DNA from: Acetobacteraceae bacterium
GTDB taxonomy: Bacteria; Pseudomonadota; Alphaproteobacteria; Acetobacterales; Acetobacteraceae
Direction: 5' to 3'
Length of the DNA stretch: 64,000 nt
NCBI GenBank assembly: GCA_030041375.1
Contig: JASHOA010000069.1
Span: 62,001-126,000 of the forward strand
The position numbers and the translations under genes were made by a program. Below are positions 3,448 through 47,019 of the stretch, piece after piece. The number at the start of each line of letters is the position of its first letter. Position 1 is the first letter of the stretch. The notes under the pieces were generated by a model. It did not search any database, was not told the origin of the DNA, and worked only from the letters and a program-made list of their open reading frames with translations.

Positions 3448-4071
3448 TTGAGATCACCCAGGAACGACCGCCAGCGGCAGCCACGCCGGCGCGGTTTCGA
3501 TGACGACAATTTCTTTGGCAATACCCCTCCCTCGCCCTTTGCCGGCTTCGGTGGATCAGCCGGACCCGAGGTCAAGGCCACCGTCAAGTGGTTCAATCCC
3601 GACAAGGGCTTCGGATTCGTCGCGCTGAGTGACGGTTCGGGCGATGTTTTCCTGCACGCCAACGCGCTGCAGGCGGCGGGCTATCAGAACGTCAGTTCCG
3701 GCGCCACGCTTCGGATCCGTGTCGGCCAGGGCCAGAAAGGCCGCCAGGTCGAGCAGGTGATCTCGGTCGACGAGAGCACGGCCGAGCCCAGCCGGGGTGG
3801 CTTCGCTCCACGCCAGCCCCGGGGGCCTCGTGCCCCGCGCCGCCCGGTCGACCTCAGCACCGCGGTCGAAATGACCGGGGTGGTCAAATGGTACAACCCG
3901 GAGAAGGGTTTCGGCTTCATCACCACCCCGGGCGGGGGGCGAGACGTGTTCGTTCATGCCTCCGCGCTCGAGGTGGCGGGCCTGCCGCCCCTGCAGGAGG
4001 GACAGGCCGTCCGGATGAACGTCGTACAGGGCGCCAAGGGCCCGGAAGTCGGTTCGATCAGCCTCGCCTAG
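3448..4071 (+). CDS. Cold-shock protein with two cold-shock domains
   Basis: Cold-shock domains bind single-stranded RNA and DNA and act as RNA chaperones. This 207-residue protein has two. The first spans about residues 43-107, with VKWFNPDKGFGFVALSDG (RNP1) and DVFLHANAL (RNP2). The second spans about 142-206, with VKWYNPEKGFGFITTPGG and DVFVHASAL. A basic Arg/Pro-rich linker joins them and the N-terminus is basic and disordered. Double-CSD proteins of about 200 residues are typical of alphaproteobacteria. The start is a TTG with AGAGGATAGG just upstream. The TAG stop at 4069-4071 is also the first three bases of a family B repeat, so the gene ends exactly where the element begins. Confidence 0.9.
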   Translation: MRSPRNDRQRQPRRRGFDDDNFFGNTPPSPFAGFGGSAGPEVKATVKWFNPDKGFGFVALSDGSGDVFLHANALQAAGYQNVSSGATLRIRVGQGQKGRQVEQVISVDESTAEPSRGGFAPRQPRGPRAPRRPVDLSTAVEMTGVVKWYNPEKGFGFITTPGGGRDVFVHASALEVAGLPPLQEGQAVRMNVVQGAKGPEVGSISLA

Positions 4072-4200
4072 TGTGCCGACTCCAACGCTTGATACCGTAG
4101 GATGTACCCTAACGGTCGGCACACACCTCTTTATTTTCAGTGGCCTGCTGATCCCCTTTCGTTTGCTGCCGGCGGCAGCAAACGTCGGGGGCAGGACACT
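4069..4200 (+). repeat. Family B palindromic element, copy B1 (132 bp)
   Basis: It begins TAGTGTGCCGAC and ends GGGGGCAGGACACT. The first hairpin pairs GTGTGCCGAC with GTCGGCACAC across a 30-odd base loop. A T-rich spacer CCTCTTTATTTTCAGTGG follows. The second hairpin pairs GTTTGCTGCCG with CGGCAGCAAAC around a single G, extended by C4/G4. Two further copies of the same 132-bp length lie at 6268 and 28775. Its first three bases are the stop codon of the cold-shock gene. Confidence 0.9.
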
Positions 4201-4255
4201 CGCCCGCGATCGCCCGAGGTGGAATCGGCGGGCGTGAATCGCGGGCTGGCATAAA
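4200..4255 (-). repeat. Half copy of family A element (second-hairpin half only)
   Basis: Directly after copy B1 lies the second-hairpin half of a family A element in reverse orientation. It has GCCCGCGATCGCCCGAGG near its start, then GGGCGTGAATCGCGGGCT and ATAAA. The first hairpin is missing and a few bases are deleted in the loop. It looks like a decayed or truncated copy joined end to end to family B. Confidence 0.75.
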
Positions 4256-4393
4256 CGGCGAAGAGTAACGCTCTCAGAAACCACCTTTTTTGGCGCCCTC
4301 AATGCCGGCCGGCAGGAGCCCGGAGCCTCCGTTCCGAACCTCCCGTCGCTCACTCCGCTCCCGTCATCCTCCCCGACCCCGCTCCGAGCCAGC

Positions 4394-5188: not shown

Positions 5189-6301
5189 ATGATGGAACTC
5201 GCATCAGCCGAAGGCGGCGGAGCACCCAAGCTGTTCGCAACCGACGCATTGCGCTGGGCAGCGCTGCGGTCGCGCGATCGGCGTGCGGACGGCAGCTTCG
5301 TCTATTCCGTCCGCACGACCGGGATCTACTGCCGCCCTTCGTGCGGGGCGCGGTCGGCGCGACCGGAGAACATCCGTTTTTTTTCCACCCCCGGCGAGGC
5401 AAGGGCAGCCGGATTCCGCCCCTGCAAGCGCTGCCGGCCCGACGCGGCAGAGCAGCCGGGCAGGGCCGAGCAGGCGGTGGCAAAGGCATGCCGACTCATC
5501 GAAGCCGCCGATGAAGTCCCGAGCCTCGACGAACTGGCCCGCGCGAGCGGCCTGAGCCGGTTCCACTTCCATCGCCTCTTCAAGGCGCTGACCGGCGTGA
5601 CACCCATGGCTTACGCCGCCGAGTGCCGGGCGCGACGGGTGCGCGACGAACTCGGGCGGGCGGGCACGGTGACGGAGGCGATTTACGCCGCCGGCTACAA
5701 CTCGAGCGGCCGGTTCTATGCCGAGGCCAATGGCCGGCTCGGCATGACGCCGCGGTCCTTCCGCGACGGCGGCAAGGGAACCCGGATGCATGTCGCCTTC
5801 GGGTCCTGCTCGCTCGGCCGCATCCTGGTTGCTGCAACCGAACGCGGCGTCGCGGCGATCGCGTTCGGCGATGACGACGACACCCTGTTGCGCACTCTCG
5901 AGGCGCGGTTTCCGAACGCCGCAGTGCGGCCGGCCGAACCTTCCTTCTCTGCAACCCTCGCCGCCGTCATCGATGCGGTCGAGACGCCGGCACGCGGCCT
6001 CGATCTGCCGCTCGACGTCCGTGGCACGGCCTTCCAGAGCCGGGTCTGGCAGGCGCTGCGGGAAATCCCGCCAGGCGCAACCGAAAGTTACGCATCGCTC
6101 GCCGAGCGGATCGGCAAACCGAAGGCGGTGCGCGCGGTTGCCGCCGCCTGCGCGGCCAACCCGCTGGCCGTCGCAATCCCCTGTCACCGGGCAGTACGAT
6201 CCGATGGCGGGCTGGCCGGTTACGCCTGGGGGGCCGAACGCAAGCGGGCACTCCTCGCACGCGAGGCCAGTGTGCCAACTCTAACGCCTGGTACTCGATA
6301 A
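5189..6301 (+). CDS. ada: Ada: methylation-responsive regulator and O6-methylguanine-DNA methyltransferase
   Basis: Ada repairs methylphosphotriesters and O6-methylguanine and, once methylated, activates alkylation-repair genes. Three parts are present in 370 residues. The Ada zinc domain has cysteines at about 48, 52, 79 and 82 (GIYCRPSCGAR, RPCKRCRPD). An AraC-type helix-turn-helix follows near 100-195. The methyltransferase domain carries the acceptor cysteine in IPCHRAVRSDGGLAGYAWG near residue 332. ATGATG follows a good AAGGAGAG site. The normal family ending is at about KRALLAREA. The last ten residues, SVPTLTPGTR, are translated from the family B repeat at 6268, and the TAA stop lies inside that repeat. 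The next two genes are also alkylation-repair genes. Confidence 0.95.
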   Translation: MMELASAEGGGAPKLFATDALRWAALRSRDRRADGSFVYSVRTTGIYCRPSCGARSARPENIRFFSTPGEARAAGFRPCKRCRPDAAEQPGRAEQAVAKACRLIEAADEVPSLDELARASGLSRFHFHRLFKALTGVTPMAYAAECRARRVRDELGRAGTVTEAIYAAGYNSSGRFYAEANGRLGMTPRSFRDGGKGTRMHVAFGSCSLGRILVAATERGVAAIAFGDDDDTLLRTLEARFPNAAVRPAEPSFSATLAAVIDAVETPARGLDLPLDVRGTAFQSRVWQALREIPPGATESYASLAERIGKPKAVRAVAAACAANPLAVAIPCHRAVRSDGGLAGYAWGAERKRALLAREASVPTLTPGTR

Positions 6302-6399
6302 TGCGCCGCAGCGGTCGGCACACTGCTCTCTCTTTTCAGTGGCCTGCTGGTCCCCTTCCGCTTGCTGCCGGCGGCAGCCAGCGTCGGGGGCAGGACACT
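6268..6399 (+). repeat. Family B palindromic element, copy B2a (132 bp)
   Basis: It matches B1 and B3 along its whole length, but begins CAGTGTGCC instead of TAGTGTGCC. The first hairpin still pairs GTGTGCC with GGCACAC. The second hairpin runs from CTTGCTGCCG to CGGCAGCCAG, and one stem pair has changed from T-A to C-G relative to the other copies. It overlaps the 3' end of ada, which reads about 30 bases into it. Confidence 0.88.
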
Positions 6400-6471
6400 G
6401 GCTCTTTTCAGTGGCCTGCTGGTCCCCTTCCGCTTGCTGCCGGCGGCAGCCAACGTCGGGGGCAGGACACT
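6400..6471 (+). repeat. Tandem second-hairpin half of family B, copy B2b (72-bp period)
   Basis: The T-rich spacer and second hairpin of B2a (from CTCTTTTCAGTGG to CAGGACACT) are repeated immediately with a period of 72 bases and almost no change (CAGCCAG to CAGCCAA). It ends six bases before the ATG of the dioxygenase gene. The near identity suggests a recent local duplication. Confidence 0.85.
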
Positions 6472-6476
6472 GGCCC

Positions 6477-16505: not shown

Positions 16506-16518
16506 GGCGAGCTGATCT

Positions 16519-16623
16519 TAGACCCGTGTCGGGCTGACTGTGCAGCCCGACACGGGTCTCGCTCTTTATTCGAGCCCGCGATTCACGCCCTCCGACGATT
16601 CCGCCTCGGGCGATCGCGGGCTA
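16519..16623 (+). repeat. Family A palindromic element, copy A1 (105 bp, subtype I)
   Basis: It begins TAGACCCGTGTCGG and ends CGATCGCGGGCTA. Hairpin 1 is a 17-pair stem (16520-16536 with 16543-16559) with a six-base loop. The spacer is CGCTCTTTATTCG. Hairpin 2 pairs AGCCCGCGAT with ATCGCGGGCT plus an inner CGCCC/GGGCG. It fills the gap between two convergent genes. Its last three bases, CTA, are the TAG stop codon of the minus-strand monooxygenase gene. Confidence 0.95.
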
Positions 16624-17790
16624 GCCGCCGACCGCCGCCTCTGCCGGCACCCCGGCACCGAAAGCCGGCATCACGTCGCGCGCGAACCAGCGAAGCTGAC
16701 GGGCGAACTCCTCCGGCCCCATTCCCTCGGCCCAGTGGATCATGAAGTCCTCGAGCCCCGGATATTTCGCCTCGATCGAGCGGATGCCGGCAATCACTTC
16801 GGCCGGCGTTCCGCAGAACCAGGCCTTCTGCGCCATTCCGTCGGCGAGCGACGGCACCCCCGTCGGTGCGCCGGGCGTGCCCCAGGTGCGGCCCTCCTTA
16901 TCGGCGTAGCGAACGAAGCCGAACGGCGCGAACCACTTGAAGCGCTCGTCGTGCGCCGGCTCGATCATGCGGATCGCCGCCTCGCGGTTTTCCGCCAGGC
17001 ACAGGCCGGCGCCCCAGATCATGTCTTCGCCGAGCTTCTTCTCTCGCCCGTACTGGCGGCACGCCGCCTGATACGCGCGCACCACGTCATCCAGGATCTT
17101 CTCGCCATTCAGCGTCACCATCGCCTTCAGACCGTGCCGCGCCATCAACTCGATCGTGCGGCCGCTCGCGATCGGCATCCAGATCTCGACCGGCAGATGC
17201 TTCGGCCGGGGCACCATCGTGATCTCCGAAAGCCGGTATCCCCGGTAATCCACCGGCGGCGGGCATTCGAAGAATTTTCCCTTGAAGTGAAAAGACTCCT
17301 TGTTGAAGCACGCGAGCAGGAGCTCGAGCCCTTCCTCGAACCAGGCACGATTCTTCTCCGTATCGATCAGCGGCCCGCCGAACGTTTCGACCTCCCGCGT
17401 GTGATAGCCGCGACCCACCCCCATGATGATGCGCCCATCCGTCACGATGTCGGCCATCGCGTAGTCCTCCGCCAGGCGGATCGGATGCCACATCGGCAGC
17501 ACATTGAAGGCACAGCCGAATTTGAGGCGGCGCGTCTGCATGGCAAGCCAGAGCCCGAGCTGGACCAGGTTCGGCAGGCACTCATAGCCTTCGCGCTGGA
17601 AATGATGCTCGGCGGTCCAGAGCGCGTAGAAGCCGCACTCGTCCATGACGCGGGCAATGTCACGGGCATTCCAGAGTGCCTCGGACAGCCGCTCGTTCGG
17701 ATAGCGCCGTTCGTTTGCCGGCGTGCCGTTGCGCCCCACATTGTCAAGCGCGATCTGGCCCACATAAAGGACGTGGAATCGCTTGATCAT
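16621..17790 (-). CDS. LLM-class flavin-dependent monooxygenase (luciferase-like)
   Basis: This is a bacterial luciferase-fold oxidoreductase using reduced flavin to oxygenate an organic substrate. The 389 residues show the family features: an N-terminal barrel strand FHVLYVGQIAL, FYALWTAEHHF near residue 50, GVGRGYHTREVETFG near 120, and ARHGLKAMV in the second half. The ATG at 17790 is chosen because it begins MIKRFHVLYVG and has a GGGGGGAAG run upstream. The gene heads a leftward pair away from the plus-strand DOPA-dioxygenase-family gene. Its stop codon is formed by the end of repeat A1. The substrate is unknown. Confidence 0.87.
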   Translation of the reverse strand: MIKRFHVLYVGQIALDNVGRNGTPANERRYPNERLSEALWNARDIARVMDECGFYALWTAEHHFQREGYECLPNLVQLGLWLAMQTRRLKFGCAFNVLPMWHPIRLAEDYAMADIVTDGRIIMGVGRGYHTREVETFGGPLIDTEKNRAWFEEGLELLLACFNKESFHFKGKFFECPPPVDYRGYRLSEITMVPRPKHLPVEIWMPIASGRTIELMARHGLKAMVTLNGEKILDDVVRAYQAACRQYGREKKLGEDMIWGAGLCLAENREAAIRMIEPAHDERFKWFAPFGFVRYADKEGRTWGTPGAPTGVPSLADGMAQKAWFCGTPAEVIAGIRSIEAKYPGLEDFMIHWAEGMGPEEFARQLRWFARDVMPAFGAGVPAEAAVGG

Positions 17791-28560: not shown

Positions 28561-28572
28561 CCCCTTATCGCC

Positions 28573-28677
28573 TAGACCCTTGTCGGTCTGACTGGGCCGT
28601 CCGACAAGGGTCCAGAACATTGTTTGAGCCCGCGATTCACGCCCTCCGACGGGTCCGCCTCGGGCGATCGCGGGCTA
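28573..28677 (+). repeat. Family A palindromic element, copy A2 (105 bp, subtype II)
   Basis: Subtype II begins TAGACCCTTGTCGG and pairs it with CCGACAAGGGTC; the spacer is AGAACATTGTTTG. The second hairpin is the standard one, with GACGGGTCC in its loop. It lies 12 bases upstream of the ptsP start codon, so it probably falls within or next to the ptsP promoter. The boundaries are CTAG on both sides. Confidence 0.93.
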
Positions 28678-28774
28678 GGGGTCGCGCTACACTCGCAATG
28701 GCGCAGGAAGAGGCCGCGGGTCTTGGGCAGAAGACAAAACGGGCTCAGTGCAAACTGCATGGCTCGTGCCACAC

Positions 28775-28906
28775 TATTGTGCCGACTCCAACGCTTGATA
28801 CCGTAAGACGCACTCTAGCGGTCGGCACACACCTCTTTATTTTCAGTGGCCTCTCATCCCCTCTCGTTTGCTGCCGCCGGCAGCAAACGAGAGGGGGCAG
28901 GACACT
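28775..28906 (+). repeat. Family B palindromic element, copy B3 (132 bp)
   Basis: It matches B1 throughout, beginning TATTGTGCCGACTCC. Its second hairpin is the most perfect in the family: CCCCTCTCGTTTGCTGCCG pairs over 19 bases with its complement around a single C. Its last base is the first base of copy A3, so the two families are joined end to end at CTAG. Confidence 0.92.
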
Positions 28907-29010
28907 AGACCCGTGTCGGGCTGACTGTGCAGCCCGACACGGCTCTCATGCTTTATTTGAGCCCGCGATTCACGCCCTCCGACGATTCCGCCTCGGGCGA
29001 TCGCGGGCTA
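28906..29010 (+). repeat. Family A palindromic element, copy A3 (105 bp, subtype I)
   Basis: Subtype I with a 17-pair first hairpin (one mismatch, GGCTCT for GGGTCT), spacer CATGCTTTATTTG, and the standard second hairpin. It starts within the last base of B3 and ends with CTAG. Confidence 0.94.
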
Positions 29011-29345
29011 GGCGCTCCCGGCTGAGTTGTCTCGCTCACATCATCGGCCGCCCGCGCGGAACGAATTCCTCGCGCCTGGCATTCCCGATCGCATGGTCCC
29101 GACGTCCGGCCCGGCGAATGCTGCGCCTGCACACGTCACCATCCGGCAGCGGCCGAAGTTCCGATTGCCGGGGCGAGGGAGAGCGATTAAATCGTGATCA
29201 GTCAGGTTCCGTGGCGGTCCGCCGGCATTCGTCTCTGCTTACGCGCAAAGGCGGGAGCCCTGAAGCCGCGCTTCGGGAATTTCGGGCTCGGGAAGCTTGA
29301 CCAGATCATCCGGCAGTGCCGGAACCCAACGGGAGGAGTTGAACG
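29011..29345. other. Spacer before the sugar importer operon
   Basis: No gene is supported. This must hold the promoter for the importer genes, but no clear promoter boxes were recognised. A GGGAGGAG ribosome-binding site stands just before the ATG at 29346. Confidence 0.45.
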
Positions 29346-33818: not shown

Positions 33819-34928
33819 ATGAATGACTCCCCCGAAACCTGCGTGACCATCACCGCGGATGCGCTTGCCGCCTTCGCCGGCGCGATCTTCCGCGCCGCCG
33901 GCTGCGACGCCGCGGAGTCAGAGCGGATCGCCCTCTCCCTCGTCTCGGCCAACCTCGCCGGCCACGACAGCCACGGCGTCGTCCGAGTCCCGCGCTACGT
34001 CCACGTTCTCGGGCTCGGCCAGGTGCGTGCCGGCCAGTCCCTCACCGTCGTGCACGACGCAGCGGCGCACGCTCTCGTCGATGGCAATTTCGGCTTCGGT
34101 CAGACCATCGCACCGCTGGCCGTCGATCTTGGCATCGCCAAGGCGAAATCCTCCGGCGTCTCGGTGATCGGGCTCCGTAATGCCGGTCATATCGGCAGGG
34201 TCGGCGAGTGGGCGGAGCGGGCCGCCGCCGCCGGTTTGATCTCGATCCACTTCGTCAACGTCTTCAACGGCGAACTGGTCGCCCCCTTCGGCGGCGTGGA
34301 CCGCCGCTTCTCGACCAATCCCTTCTGTGTCGGCGTGCCGATGGCGGAGGGCCCGCCACTCCTGCTTGACTTTGCCACCTCGGTCGTTGCGGAGGGCAAG
34401 GTTCTCGTCGCCTCCCATGGTGGCAAGAAGGTCCCCGATGACGCGATGATCGAGCCCGATGGCCGCCTCTCGTCCGATCCCCGGACCCTCTATGGCCCGA
34501 TCGAGGGTACCGACGAGCGCAATCCGAGCGCAGGCCCGGGTGCGCTCCGCGCCTTCGGCGGACACAAGGGTTCCGGCCTCGCCTTCATGTGCGAGATCCT
34601 GGCCGGCTGCCTGACCGGCGGCGGCACCTCCGGCCCGGCCGAGCACGGTCCCGGCCGCCGGATCGCCAACGGCATGCTCTCAATCTACGTTACCCCCGGC
34701 GCATTCGTTGCCGCCGCCTTCGCCGATGCCGCGCGTGAATACTGCACTTACGTCAAAGCCTCCCGCCCGGCGGAGGCCGGGGTGGAGGTGCTGCTGCCGG
34801 GCGAGCCGGAGCGACGCACCCGCGCGCTTCGCTTGAAGAACGGTATCCCCCTTCAGCACCGCACCTGGGAGGCCATCGTGGCGACCGCCCGCAATCTCGG
34901 CGTGAATGCGCCTGCCCGCACTCCTTAG
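33819..34928 (+). CDS. Ldh2/malate-lactate dehydrogenase family oxidoreductase
   Basis: This NAD(P)-dependent dehydrogenase of the type II malate/L-lactate/sulfolactate family has 369 residues. The family signature is GHDSHGVVRVPRYV near residue 47, with VDGNFGFGQTIAPLAVD and GLRNAGHIGRVGEWAE after it, and RRFSTNPFCVGVP mid-protein. The substrate is a 2-hydroxy acid or keto acid that cannot be named. Its place directly behind the importer operon suggests it handles the imported compound. The stop codon is TAG at 34926-34928, which is also the left end of repeat A4. Confidence 0.9.
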   Translation: MNDSPETCVTITADALAAFAGAIFRAAGCDAAESERIALSLVSANLAGHDSHGVVRVPRYVHVLGLGQVRAGQSLTVVHDAAAHALVDGNFGFGQTIAPLAVDLGIAKAKSSGVSVIGLRNAGHIGRVGEWAERAAAAGLISIHFVNVFNGELVAPFGGVDRRFSTNPFCVGVPMAEGPPLLLDFATSVVAEGKVLVASHGGKKVPDDAMIEPDGRLSSDPRTLYGPIEGTDERNPSAGPGALRAFGGHKGSGLAFMCEILAGCLTGGGTSGPAEHGPGRRIANGMLSIYVTPGAFVAAAFADAAREYCTYVKASRPAEAGVEVLLPGEPERRTRALRLKNGIPLQHRTWEAIVATARNLGVNAPARTP

Positions 34929-35030
34929 ACCCGTGTCGGGCTGACTGTGCAGCCCGACACGGGTCTCGCGGTTTATTCGAGCCCGCGATTCACGCCCTCC
35001 GACGTTTCCGCCTCGGGCGATCGCGGGCTA
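34926..35030 (+). repeat. Family A palindromic element, copy A4 (105 bp, subtype I)
   Basis: Subtype I with a perfect 17-pair first hairpin, spacer CGCGGTTTATTCG, and the second hairpin with GACGTTTCC in its loop. The first three bases are the stop codon of the dehydrogenase gene, so the hairpin stands directly after the gene. The last bases, CTAG, are seven bases from the next ATG. Confidence 0.95.
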
Positions 35031-35037
35031 GATCACG

Positions 35038-35436: not shown

Positions 35437-35644
35437 ACGGGACGCCGCGAGGGGCTCTCCGGCCGGCATGAGACGGGCGCGAGAATGCCCCGCGAAGGCG
35501 TAGAAAAGGCCGGCGATTGTCAGGAGGCGCAGGCTTCCGCATAGTTGGGCCGTCCGCGAGCGGAGCAGGCGCAGGTCCGGCGCTCTTCACATTCGAACAG
35601 CCACCTGCATCAGCCATGCCCTGAGCGACGAAGATCCGGCGGCC

Positions 35645-35749
35645 TAGACCCTTGTCGGTCCGACTGGGCCGTCCGACAAGGGTCCAGGACGTTGTTTGAG
35701 CCCGCGATTCACGCCCTCCGACGATTCCGCCTCGGGCGATCGCGGGCTA
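35645..35749 (+). repeat. Family A palindromic element, copy A5 (105 bp, subtype II)
   Basis: Subtype II: TAGACCCTTGTCGG pairs with CCGACAAGGGTC, spacer AGGACGTTGTTTG, then the standard second hairpin with GACGATTCC. CTAG occurs at both boundaries. It lies upstream of the phosphoketolase gene, about 80 bases from its ATG. Confidence 0.94.
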
Positions 35750-35828
35750 GCGTCTCTCCATCCGGTCTCCGCGATTTCTCAGGCATCCGGTTTGCAGCGA
35801 CGCGAGCGAGCGAAAGGAGAGCTGAGCC

Positions 35829-42204: not shown

Positions 42205-42309
42205 CAGCCCGCGATCGTCCGACGCGGAATCGTCGGAGGGCGTGAATCGCGGGCTCGAATAAAGCGCTAGACACGTGTCGGGCTGCACAGTCAGCCCGAC
42301 ACGGGTCTA
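42205..42309 (-). repeat. Family A palindromic element, copy A6 (105 bp, subtype I, reverse)
   Basis: This is the only full family A copy on the minus strand. Read on that strand it begins TAGACCCGTGTCGG and ends GATCGCGGGCTGG; the end CTGG replaces CTAG and the second-hairpin loop is partly changed. Its left boundary CTAG is shared with the first bases of the family C element that follows. Confidence 0.92.
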
Positions 42310-42414
42310 GAGCAATTTCCGTTCGCCACGGCTCGCGGTAACTGCTCTAGCTCTTTGTTTTGGCGAGCATCTTCACGCGATCAGCCGAGCCCGTCTGATC
42401 GCGATCTGCTCTAG
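42307..42414 (+). repeat. Family C palindromic element (108 bp)
   Basis: It is bounded by CTAGAGCA at the left and TGCTCTAG at the right. Hairpin 1 pairs CTAGAGCA (42307-42314) with TGCTCTAG (42343-42350). The T-rich spacer is CTCTTTGTTTTGGCGAG. Hairpin 2 pairs CGCGATCAG with CTGATCGCG. It has no sequence match to families A and B beyond the CTAG ends and the spacer, but the same plan. Similar TCTAGAGC-type repeats are, from memory, common in alphaproteobacterial genomes. Confidence 0.75.
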
Positions 42415-45322: not shown

Positions 45323-46186
45323 ATGAACCGGCGAACGACAATGCGCGGCACTTTCAGGGTGCGGCTTGTTGCGATCGCTGCCAGCGCAGTGATGGCGCTC
45401 GCGCTTGCAGTGCCCGTGCACGCCGAGGATCTGCTTGCGAAAGTCCGCCGTACCGGCATGCTGGTCATCGGGACCTCCAATGACGCCCCCCTGTCCTATG
45501 TCGATTCCAAGACGCAGGCCGCCCTTGGCGTCATACCGGATATTCTTCGCGAGTTTCTGCGACGCGAAGGCATCAACGCGAAAATGACGGTCATCGCCAT
45601 GCCGTTCGCGAGCCTGATCCCATCGCTGCAGAGCGATCGTATCGACCTGATGGGGGATGCGATGTACATCCGCCCGGCGCGCGCCAAGGTGGTCGATTTC
45701 ACGCGCGTCGTCTTTTACAATCCCGAAGCCCTCGACGTTCCCAAGGGCAATCCGAAGCATCTCCACTCTCTCGCCGATCTCTGCGGCCACAGCGCAGGCA
45801 CGTACGAGGGCACCACTTATGTCGAGCTCCTGAAATCGGCGAACAAGGCCTGTCCGGCGGGCAAGGCCATTGACATCAAGCAATATCCGGTCATCCAGGA
45901 TGTGTTCGCCGACCTCTCTGCGGGCCGGCTGGATGCCGGTGTCGTCGATGCCTCCCTGTCGGCCTACGCGCTCAAGCAGAATCCCTCGCTCGCCTTTGAG
46001 CTGGTCGCCGACTACAAGCCGCAAGCCAAGGACACTTCCGACTGCGCTCTCGCACTCGCCAAGGGTAATCCGGACTTCATCAAGGCGTTCAACACGACCT
46101 ATACGGCGATGCTGGAGGATGGCACCGCGGCGCGCCTGTTCGCACAATGGGGCCTGATCCCGACCGACTTCTTCCTCAAGCCTTAG
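45323..46186 (+). CDS. Polar amino-acid type ABC importer, periplasmic binding protein
   Basis: This is a 287-residue family 3 solute-binding protein. A signal peptide of about 33 residues is visible (VRLVAIAASAVMALALAVP then VHAED). The mature part starts LLAKVRRTGMLVIGTSNDAP and contains DLMGDAMYIRPARAKVVDF and KGNPDFIKAFNTTYTAML. The ATG follows AAAAGGAGGAGGG. It is divergent from the ureohydrolase/DUF1989 pair and probably supplies its substrate. Its TAG stop (46184-46186) is the left end of repeat A8, which then separates it from the permease gene. Confidence 0.88.
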   Translation: MNRRTTMRGTFRVRLVAIAASAVMALALAVPVHAEDLLAKVRRTGMLVIGTSNDAPLSYVDSKTQAALGVIPDILREFLRREGINAKMTVIAMPFASLIPSLQSDRIDLMGDAMYIRPARAKVVDFTRVVFYNPEALDVPKGNPKHLHSLADLCGHSAGTYEGTTYVELLKSANKACPAGKAIDIKQYPVIQDVFADLSAGRLDAGVVDASLSAYALKQNPSLAFELVADYKPQAKDTSDCALALAKGNPDFIKAFNTTYTAMLEDGTAARLFAQWGLIPTDFFLKP

Positions 46187-46288
46187 ACCCTTGTCGGTCT
46201 GACTGGGCCGTCCGACAAGGGTCCAGGACATTGTTTGAGCCCGCGATTCACGCCCTCCGACGGGTCCGCCTCGGGCGATCGCGGGCTA
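46184..46288 (+). repeat. Family A palindromic element, copy A8 (105 bp, subtype II)
   Basis: Subtype II: TAGACCCTTGTCGG pairs with CCGACAAGGGTC, spacer AGGACATTGTTTG, and the second hairpin has GACGGGTCC in its loop. It lies between the binding-protein and permease genes, inside what should be one operon. Its first three bases are the stop codon of the binding-protein gene. Confidence 0.95.
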
Positions 46289-46338
46289 GTCCCGCGAGAT
46301 CCCGCCCGAGCGCCGTCGGCTGATCGGCCGGCATTCGG

Positions 46339-47019
46339 ATGGGCGTTGTTTCCGACCTGATCGCCTGGGCGCCGGATCTCTGGAAGGGCACCAGGATCAC
46401 CGTTCTTCTGACCTTCGCGAGCATGGCGCTCGCGCTGGTGCTTGGTCTTTTTCTCGCACTTGCCCGCCGGTCCCGCCACCGCGCGGTGGCGGGACCGGCC
46501 GCGGTGTTCGTCGAGCTCATCCGCGGAAGCCCGTTGCTGCTTCAGCTTTTTTACATCTTCTACGTCTTTCCGTTCTTCGGGCTTCGCCTCACCAATTTCG
46601 TCGCCGGGATCCTGGGGCTTGCCATCAATTACGGCGCCTATCTCAGCGAGGTCTTCCGGGCCGGAATCGAAGCGGTGGATCGCGGCCAGTGGGAAGCCGC
46701 CGACGCACTCGGGATGCACCCCCGGCTCACCATGCGCCTGGTGGTTCTACCGCAGGCGGTGCGCATCGTGATCCCGCCGATCGGCAACTATTTCATTTCG
46801 CTCTTCAAAGATACGGCCCTGGTTTCGACCATCTCGATCCCGGAGCTGTTGTTCACCGGCCAGCTCATCGCCGCGGATACGTTCAAATATCTCCAGATCT
46901 ACAGCTTCATCTTCGTCATCTATGTGATCATCAGCATTCCGGCGAGCCGGGGCGTGAAGTTGCTCGAACGCCGGCTCGGCCCGCCGGCCTCGCGTGGCCG
47001 GGCGGCCGGCCACACGTGA
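46339..47019 (+). CDS. Polar amino-acid type ABC importer permease (HisM-like)
   Basis: This 226-residue inner-membrane permease has the family run VFVELIRGSPLLLQLFYIFYVF near residue 54 (the HisMQ signature). The coupling motif EAADALGMHPRLTMRLVVLPQ is near residue 117. About five hydrophobic segments are visible. The coding region contains a perfect 34-base palindrome at 46466-46499, in the cytoplasmic loop before the signature. The matching ATPase gene is not adjacent, so it must be shared or lie elsewhere. The preceding gene is the likely partner binding protein, across repeat A8. Confidence 0.87.
   Translation: MGVVSDLIAWAPDLWKGTRITVLLTFASMALALVLGLFLALARRSRHRAVAGPAAVFVELIRGSPLLLQLFYIFYVFPFFGLRLTNFVAGILGLAINYGAYLSEVFRAGIEAVDRGQWEAADALGMHPRLTMRLVVLPQAVRIVIPPIGNYFISLFKDTALVSTISIPELLFTGQLIAADTFKYLQIYSFIFVIYVIISIPASRGVKLLERRLGPPASRGRAAGHT
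46466..46499. repeat. Perfect 34-base palindrome inside the permease gene
   Basis: GCCGGTCCCGCCACCGC is followed without any gap by its exact reverse complement. It encodes the RRSRHRAVAGPA part of the protein. The protein keeps normal family length, so the palindrome is not an insertion in frame. Confidence 0.9.

What the first reader, a model, noticed from the sequence alone, without database searches (positions are those of the whole stretch)
42307..42414. Three unlike repeat families share one architecture (CTAG, hairpin, T-rich spacer, hairpin, CTAG)
The family C element at 42307 differs in sequence from A and B but has CTAG ends, two hairpins and the spacer CTCTTTGTTTT. A uses CTCTTTATT and B uses CTCTTTATTTT in the same place. 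A common plan with different stems suggests a superfamily whose function depends on shape, ends and spacer, perhaps moved by one enzyme. Y-TA-G ends resemble the YTAR target of IS5-group elements and the tetranucleotide-plus-hairpin layout of REP sequences moved by RAYT transposases.
Basis: partly seen in the sequence, partly recalled or inferred. Interest (0 to 1): 0.82.

Follow-up and report, generated by a model that had tools for sequence, protein, structure and literature searches.

The report
Two-hairpin mobile repeats of Alphaproteobacteria
Short DNA repeats scattered between the genes of this bacterium are tiny jumping elements that share one plan (two hairpins and a T-rich link, dropped into YTAR sites by copying a TA), and their ends point to an IS630-type transposase, which would answer the old question of what moves this widespread kind of repeat.

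Summary
The 108-nt element at 42307 is one of at least 40 near-identical copies in this genome and has the reported CTAG ends, two hairpins and T-rich spacer. A covariance model built only from C-type elements of this genus and other Acetobacteraceae recovers all seven full family A elements of the window end to end, and no B element. So A and C are one superfamily; B shares only the plan, the spacer and the site. Both hairpins are kept by compensatory change. Filled and empty sites show insertion into YTAR with TA duplicated, the element running G...C. No Y1/RAYT transposase occurs in the genus. Instead, C ends match IS630 ends (TA|GAGC..., 10-12 of 12, against 0.16% of TA sites), and IS630 of that subgroup is found in 9 of 17 carrier genomes against 1 of 22 others. 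By description these are CIR/Bru-RS/RIME-type repeats of Alphaproteobacteria, whose duplication and mover were listed as unknown (PMC2229807). Best reading: IS630-mobilised, non-autonomous two-hairpin elements. Transposition itself is inferred, not shown; the movers of A and B remain open.

The parts
42307..42414 (+). family C element, full length (G...C unit 42310-42411 between TA at 42308-42309 and TA at 42412-42413)
   Evidence: 40 copies in the genome; covariance model hit, 112 bits, E 6e-23
42307..42350 (+). hairpin 1 of the C element, itself a CTAG...CTAG palindrome; left end GAGCAATTTCCG resembles IS630 ends
   Evidence: fold; covariation; end comparison
42351..42361 (+). T-rich spacer CTCTTTGTTTT, conserved across the superfamily as about TTTGTTTT
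42365..42411 (+). hairpin 2 of the C element; GANTC in its top loop in most copies but lost in the window copy
42206..42310 (-). family A element abutting C and sharing its CTAG (42307-42310)
16518..16624 (+). family A element
28572..28678 (+). family A element; empty site in close relative G003 (CTGG)
28905..29011 (+). family A element inserted at the right end of a B element; empty site in G003 (CTAT)
34925..35031 (+). family A element
35644..35750 (+). family A element, variant stems (CCCTTGTCGG)
46183..46289 (+). family A element; empty site in G003 CTTAG becomes CTTAG[element]CTAG, i.e. TA duplicated
4070..4203 (+). family B element, followed by a partial A element on the - strand (4199-4261)
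6269..6474 (+). diverged family B element with a second partial B
28776..28909 (+). family B element

Best explanation
The C element (and its homologue A) is a non-autonomous transposable element of about 104 bp: two terminal hairpins joined by a T-rich spacer, with no gene. It inserts into YTAR, duplicates the central TA, and accumulates between genes. For C, an IS630-family transposase acting in trans is the most likely mover, because both C ends look like the ends of IS630 elements of one alphaproteobacterial subgroup (TA|GAGC...). New copies land in the rare YTAG sites, including those at the ends of older copies, which builds clusters and mosaics. The paired arms are kept while the letters change, so pairing matters more than sequence. 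Shown: copies, plan, TA/YTAR insertion at empty sites, A-C homology, compensatory change, intergenic placement, end similarity to IS630. Inferred: that IS630 transposase does the moving, and that the hairpins matter for its action or for survival of the element.
For: Copies 90-100% alike at unrelated places. Empty sites: A at 46182 and A in L032, CTTAG against CTTAG[A]CTAG; C inside the loop of a B copy at CTAG; B in G003, GTAG against GTAG[B]CTGG. In family A, left TTAG 11 and right CTAA 9, against left CTAA 1 and right TTAG 0 (Fisher p 3e-5); the two sides carry the same non-CTAG tetranucleotide in only 1 of 36, as expected for a TA and not for a 4-bp duplication. IS630-subgroup ends TA|GAGC in 6 of the 8 plasmid copies of other Alphaproteobacteria whose two ends were found (the other two GAGT) and in the window's own genome, TA|GAGCGGTTTC. 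C elements of G002 begin TA|GAGCGGTTTCCG. C ends match IS630 ends at 10-12 of 12 positions against 0.16% of TA sites with 10 or more. Over 22 nt the consensus hairpin-1 end matches an IS630 end of carrier genome G192 at 17-18 positions, and the G045 element matches its own IS630 at 18, where none of 17,057 TA sites exceeds 16. IS630 subgroup in 9 of 17 carriers against 1 of 22 non-carriers, p 0.0009, or 0.007 among larger genomes. Compensatory changes at 15 of 31 pairs; 0 of 500 shuffles reach the covariation score. None of 82 elements lies inside a predicted gene (one partial overlap) although 79% of the sequence is coding.
Against: No intact IS630 of this subgroup with both ends was recovered in the window's own genome, only fragments in a draft assembly. 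Within-genome pairing of IS630 ends and element ends is not better than random pairing overall (p 0.1). Ends of A and B do not match IS630 ends. Eight of 17 carriers show no IS630 of this subgroup, so the mover may be lost, supplied from outside, or different. B junctions partly suggest a longer duplication. Two A empty sites read CTGG and one CTAT instead of YTAR.
Confidence: 0.75

Rival explanations
1. REP/BIME-type sequences moved by a RAYT (Y1 HUH) transposase, with CTAG standing in for GTAG.
For: A tetranucleotide at the foot of each hairpin and paired hairpins, as in REP pairs.
Against: No Y1_Tnp match in 5 of 5 genomes of the genus while Caulobacter and other controls ring. TA is duplicated on insertion, which Y1 enzymes do not do (own knowledge).
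Confidence: 0.03
2. The elements are moved by another DDE enzyme that likes CTAG or YTAR: the IS1182-family element that sits in their ends here, or an IS5/IS427-type enzyme such as IS711.
For: An IS1182-family element is abundant here and abuts CTAG at all 30 ends read, 22 of them in A or C elements. Its ends share CGTGTCGG with hairpin 1 of A. IS711 duplicates TA at YTAR and prefers Bru-RS repeats (PMC2266754).
Against: C ends and the right end of A do not look like the IS1182-type ends. That IS is always in CTAG, never in TTAG or CTAA as A is, and it uses the elements as landing sites. IS5-type enzymes were not searched for here.
Confidence: 0.14
3. The shape is kept for a host function (RNA 3' end or terminator, CcrM/GANTC platform, nucleoid site), and mobility is secondary.
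For: Compensatory change; GANTC in 64 of 64 A, 48 of 58 B and 28 of 36 C copies against 0.25 per 108 bp in the genome; a RAMA-domain (CcrM-like) gene in all 5 genomes; convergent gaps somewhat enriched.
Against: No strand preference relative to tandem genes, 19 against 19. G-T is not favoured over A-C in the stems, 38 against 82, as RNA pairing on this strand would predict. GANTC is at the top loop of only 31 of 57 superfamily elements. Template switching between arms can also restore pairing without selection (own knowledge).
Confidence: 0.08

Closest known systems
CIR, Caulobacter CcrM-associated intergenic repeats (Chen and Shapiro 2003, as described in PMC2229807)
   Same: About 110 bp, two long hairpin arms joined by a linker, TA at the ends, GANTC at a hairpin top, strictly intergenic, many copies, Alphaproteobacteria.
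   Different: CIR sequences were not held, so homology was not tested. Duplication was listed as '?' and the mover as unknown; here TA/YTAR insertion and IS630-like ends are found. GANTC is not universal here.
RIME and Bru-RS palindromic repeats (Osteras 1995; Halling and Bricker 1994; cited in PMC2573895 and PMC2266754)
   Same: Intergenic palindromic repeats of Alphaproteobacteria, 103-105 bp for Bru-RS (PMC2267715); Bru-RS are preferred landing sites of an IS that likes YTAR (IS711), as these elements are here for an IS1182-family element.
   Different: Sequences not compared directly.
RUP of Streptococcus pneumoniae (107 bp, proposed to be moved by IS630-Spn1; PMC2229807)
   Same: Gene-less element of the same size, TA in the target, ends like those of an IS630 element.
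   Different: RUP has a 9-bp terminal inverted repeat and is not described with a two-arm plan; different bacteria, no sequence relation expected.
REP/BIME with RAYT
   Same: Hairpins with a tetranucleotide foot, intergenic, mosaic clusters.
   Different: No RAYT in the genus; TA duplication; a conserved spacer joins two unlike hairpins.

Membership tests
CIR-type repeats (Chen and Shapiro) | about 110 bp, two long hairpin arms joined by a linker | tested here: met
   48 of 66 elements are 108 nt long; both arms show compensatory change
CIR-type repeats (Chen and Shapiro) | 5'TA3' at the termini | tested here: met
   YTAG left and CTAR right in most copies
CIR-type repeats (Chen and Shapiro) | GANTC at or in a terminal loop of one hairpin | tested here: inconclusive
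   top of hairpin 2 in 27 of 36 local C copies but in 31 of 57 superfamily members; absent in the window copy itself
CIR-type repeats (Chen and Shapiro) | strictly intergenic | tested here: met
   81 of 82 intergenic, 1 partial overlap (simple gene caller)
CIR-type repeats (Chen and Shapiro) | sequence homology to CIR1-4 | not testable with these tools
   paper and sequences not held
IS630-mobilised MITE | TA duplication on insertion | tested here: met
   empty sites and junction statistics, clearest for A
IS630-mobilised MITE | ends like those of an IS630 element, family C | tested here: met
   10-12 of 12, up to 17-18 of 22
IS630-mobilised MITE | ends like those of an IS630 element, families A and B | tested here: not met
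   5-8 of 12, within chance
IS630-mobilised MITE | moved by the IS630 transposase in trans | not testable with these tools
   needs a transposition assay
REP moved by RAYT | a RAYT (Y1_Tnp) gene in the genome or genus | tested here: not met
   0 of 5 genomes, controls positive

The most novel reading that the evidence does not exclude
A family of IS630-dependent elements spread through Alphaproteobacteria whose two ends are each a self-paired hairpin kept by pairing rather than by sequence, so that the transposase (or the host replication step it uses) recognises DNA shape at the ends. This would make CIR, RIME and Bru-RS one mobile superfamily with a known mover.
Probability: 0.2. Interest if true: 0.78.

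Novelty: new member of a known kind. Interest (0 to 1): 0.58.

Why it matters
Palindromic intergenic repeats are abundant in many alphaproteobacterial genomes, yet a review of such elements lists the target duplication of the CIR type as unknown and says more is needed to learn how they move (PMC2229807). The empty sites, the YTAR/TA rule and the IS630-like ends give a concrete, testable mover, and the changing but paired stems give natural test material for whether end recognition depends on shape.

Tried and rejected
RAYT search: none. Rfam: no family in the window. A 4-bp CTAG duplication for A: rejected by junction statistics. Terminator role: no strand bias. B as a sequence relative of A or C: no signal in pairwise shuffles or with the covariance model. 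Autonomous versions with A or B ends around a gene: end pairs 0.5-2.6 kb apart were listed (12 for A, 2 for B) but not examined further; several are simply two known element copies. IS630 copies of other subgroups (TAGTACCC... ends) have different ends. Matching of IS630 ends to elements genome by genome: strong in G045 only, overall p 0.1. First-look caps mean that copy numbers are lower bounds.

Full report
Setting. The window lies in a 4.5-Mb draft genome (95 contigs). Contig lengths identify relatives G003 and G002 as Acetobacteraceae MAGs (isolates JOPF016 and JOPF110), so the window is from an Acetobacteraceae bacterium (inference). G003 is about 95% identical in aligned stretches.

Observation. 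The 42307 element has the reported anatomy. It is 108 nt and belongs to a family with 40 scored copies, most at full length, with unrelated flanks. Families A and B are also abundant. Elements often abut and share a CTAG: A(-) and C(+) share 42307-42310, and A sits directly on the right end of B at 28905.

Are the families related? Pairwise, hairpin 2 of A and C align beyond shuffles (0-3 of 500), while B shows nothing. A Xanthobacter member finds relatives on plasmids of Bradyrhizobium, Bosea, Methylobacterium, Sinorhizobium and Asticcacaulis. An alignment of 57 elements gave a covariance model. That model contains no A or B element, yet it hits all seven full A elements of the window over positions 1-108 (E 3e-8 to 3e-4) and no B. 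In the class it hits 18 of 192 genomes, many with ten or more copies. Distant members keep the plan YTAG, hairpin, T-rich spacer, hairpin, CTAR with quite different stems.

Structure. On the 57-element alignment, 91% of stem cells pair, 15 of 31 pairs have changes on both sides, and no shuffle reaches the covariation score; slid structures fall below 40% paired. Hairpin 1 is partly fixed by the search pattern, but hairpin 2 was not selected and carries most of the signal. Mismatches do not favour G-T over A-C (38 against 82), so there is no sign of RNA-level selection on this strand. A few columns dominate that count.

Insertion. Comparison with G003 gave clean empty sites. Two independent A insertions turn CTTAG into CTTAG[A]CTAG, C sits in a CTAG of a B loop, and a B copy in G003 turns GTAG into GTAG[B]CTGG. 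In 64 A junctions the outer base varies asymmetrically: left TTAG 11, right CTAA 9, opposite cases 1 and 0, p 3e-5. This fits duplication of TA in YTAR with the element running from G to C. Some B junctions look like a longer duplication and are unexplained.

Mover. Y1/RAYT genes are absent. IS630 (DDE_3) matches are present in all five genomes of the genus. One subgroup in the own genome ends in TA|GAGCGGTTTC, which is also how C elements of G002 begin. In plasmids of other Alphaproteobacteria, 6 of 8 IS630 copies of this subgroup whose two ends were found end in TA|GAGC and two in TA|GAGT. C ends match such ends at 10-12 of 12 positions, a level reached by 0.16% of TA sites. An IS630 of element carrier G192 has the end GAGCGTTTTCCGTTCATTCTGG, 17-18 of 22 identical to the consensus C end; six near-identical IS630 copies in G045 match the local element at 18 of 22, including unpaired positions; 17,057 control TA sites reach 16 at most. 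Carriers have this IS630 more often (9 of 17 against 1 of 22). Genome-by-genome matching is not significant overall (p 0.1). Taken together, an IS630 enzyme is the best candidate for C; nothing comparable was found for A or B.

Other features. An IS1182-family element (weak match of a 54-residue fragment) is inserted at CTAG at all 30 ends read, 22 of them in A or C elements, much as IS711 prefers Bru-RS (PMC2266754). GANTC sites are enriched in all three families and a RAMA-domain, CcrM-like gene is present in all five genomes, matching the description of CIR repeats (PMC2229807). The 82 elements found in 1.44 Mb are intergenic, without strand preference.

Comparison with the known. By anatomy these are CIR/Bru-RS/RIME-type repeats; direct sequence comparison with those was not possible. 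By mechanism they resemble RUP with IS630-Spn1. No held paper was found that links IS630 to CIR-type repeats, which says nothing about papers not held.

Noticed in passing
L099-L128: IS1182-family element with about 40 scored ends in the genome, inserted at CTAG at all 30 ends read, 22 of them in A or C elements; it breaks the assembly.
   Followed up: partly
L016, L099: Outer stem of A hairpin 1 (CCCGTGTCGG) resembles the IS1182-type end (CGTGTCGGATTGG), and end variants look exchanged between the two.
   Followed up: no
L129, L138, L133, L085: Some B copies carry the same unusual tetranucleotide on both sides (CTAT, CTAA, CTAC), suggesting a 3-4 bp duplication unlike that of A.
   Followed up: partly
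L036:1501-1734: Family A element followed by two more tandem units of spacer plus hairpin 2 (about 63 bp each).
   Followed up: no
L270, L287, L289, L296, L334: Hairpin 1 appears to occur alone, without hairpin 2, in some relatives; the arms behave as modules.
   Followed up: no
window 46467-46545: Weak covariance-model match (E 0.011) near the A element at 46183; nature unknown.
   Followed up: no
window, whole: CTAG is about threefold depleted, so element ends are a large share of all CTAG sites.
   Followed up: no
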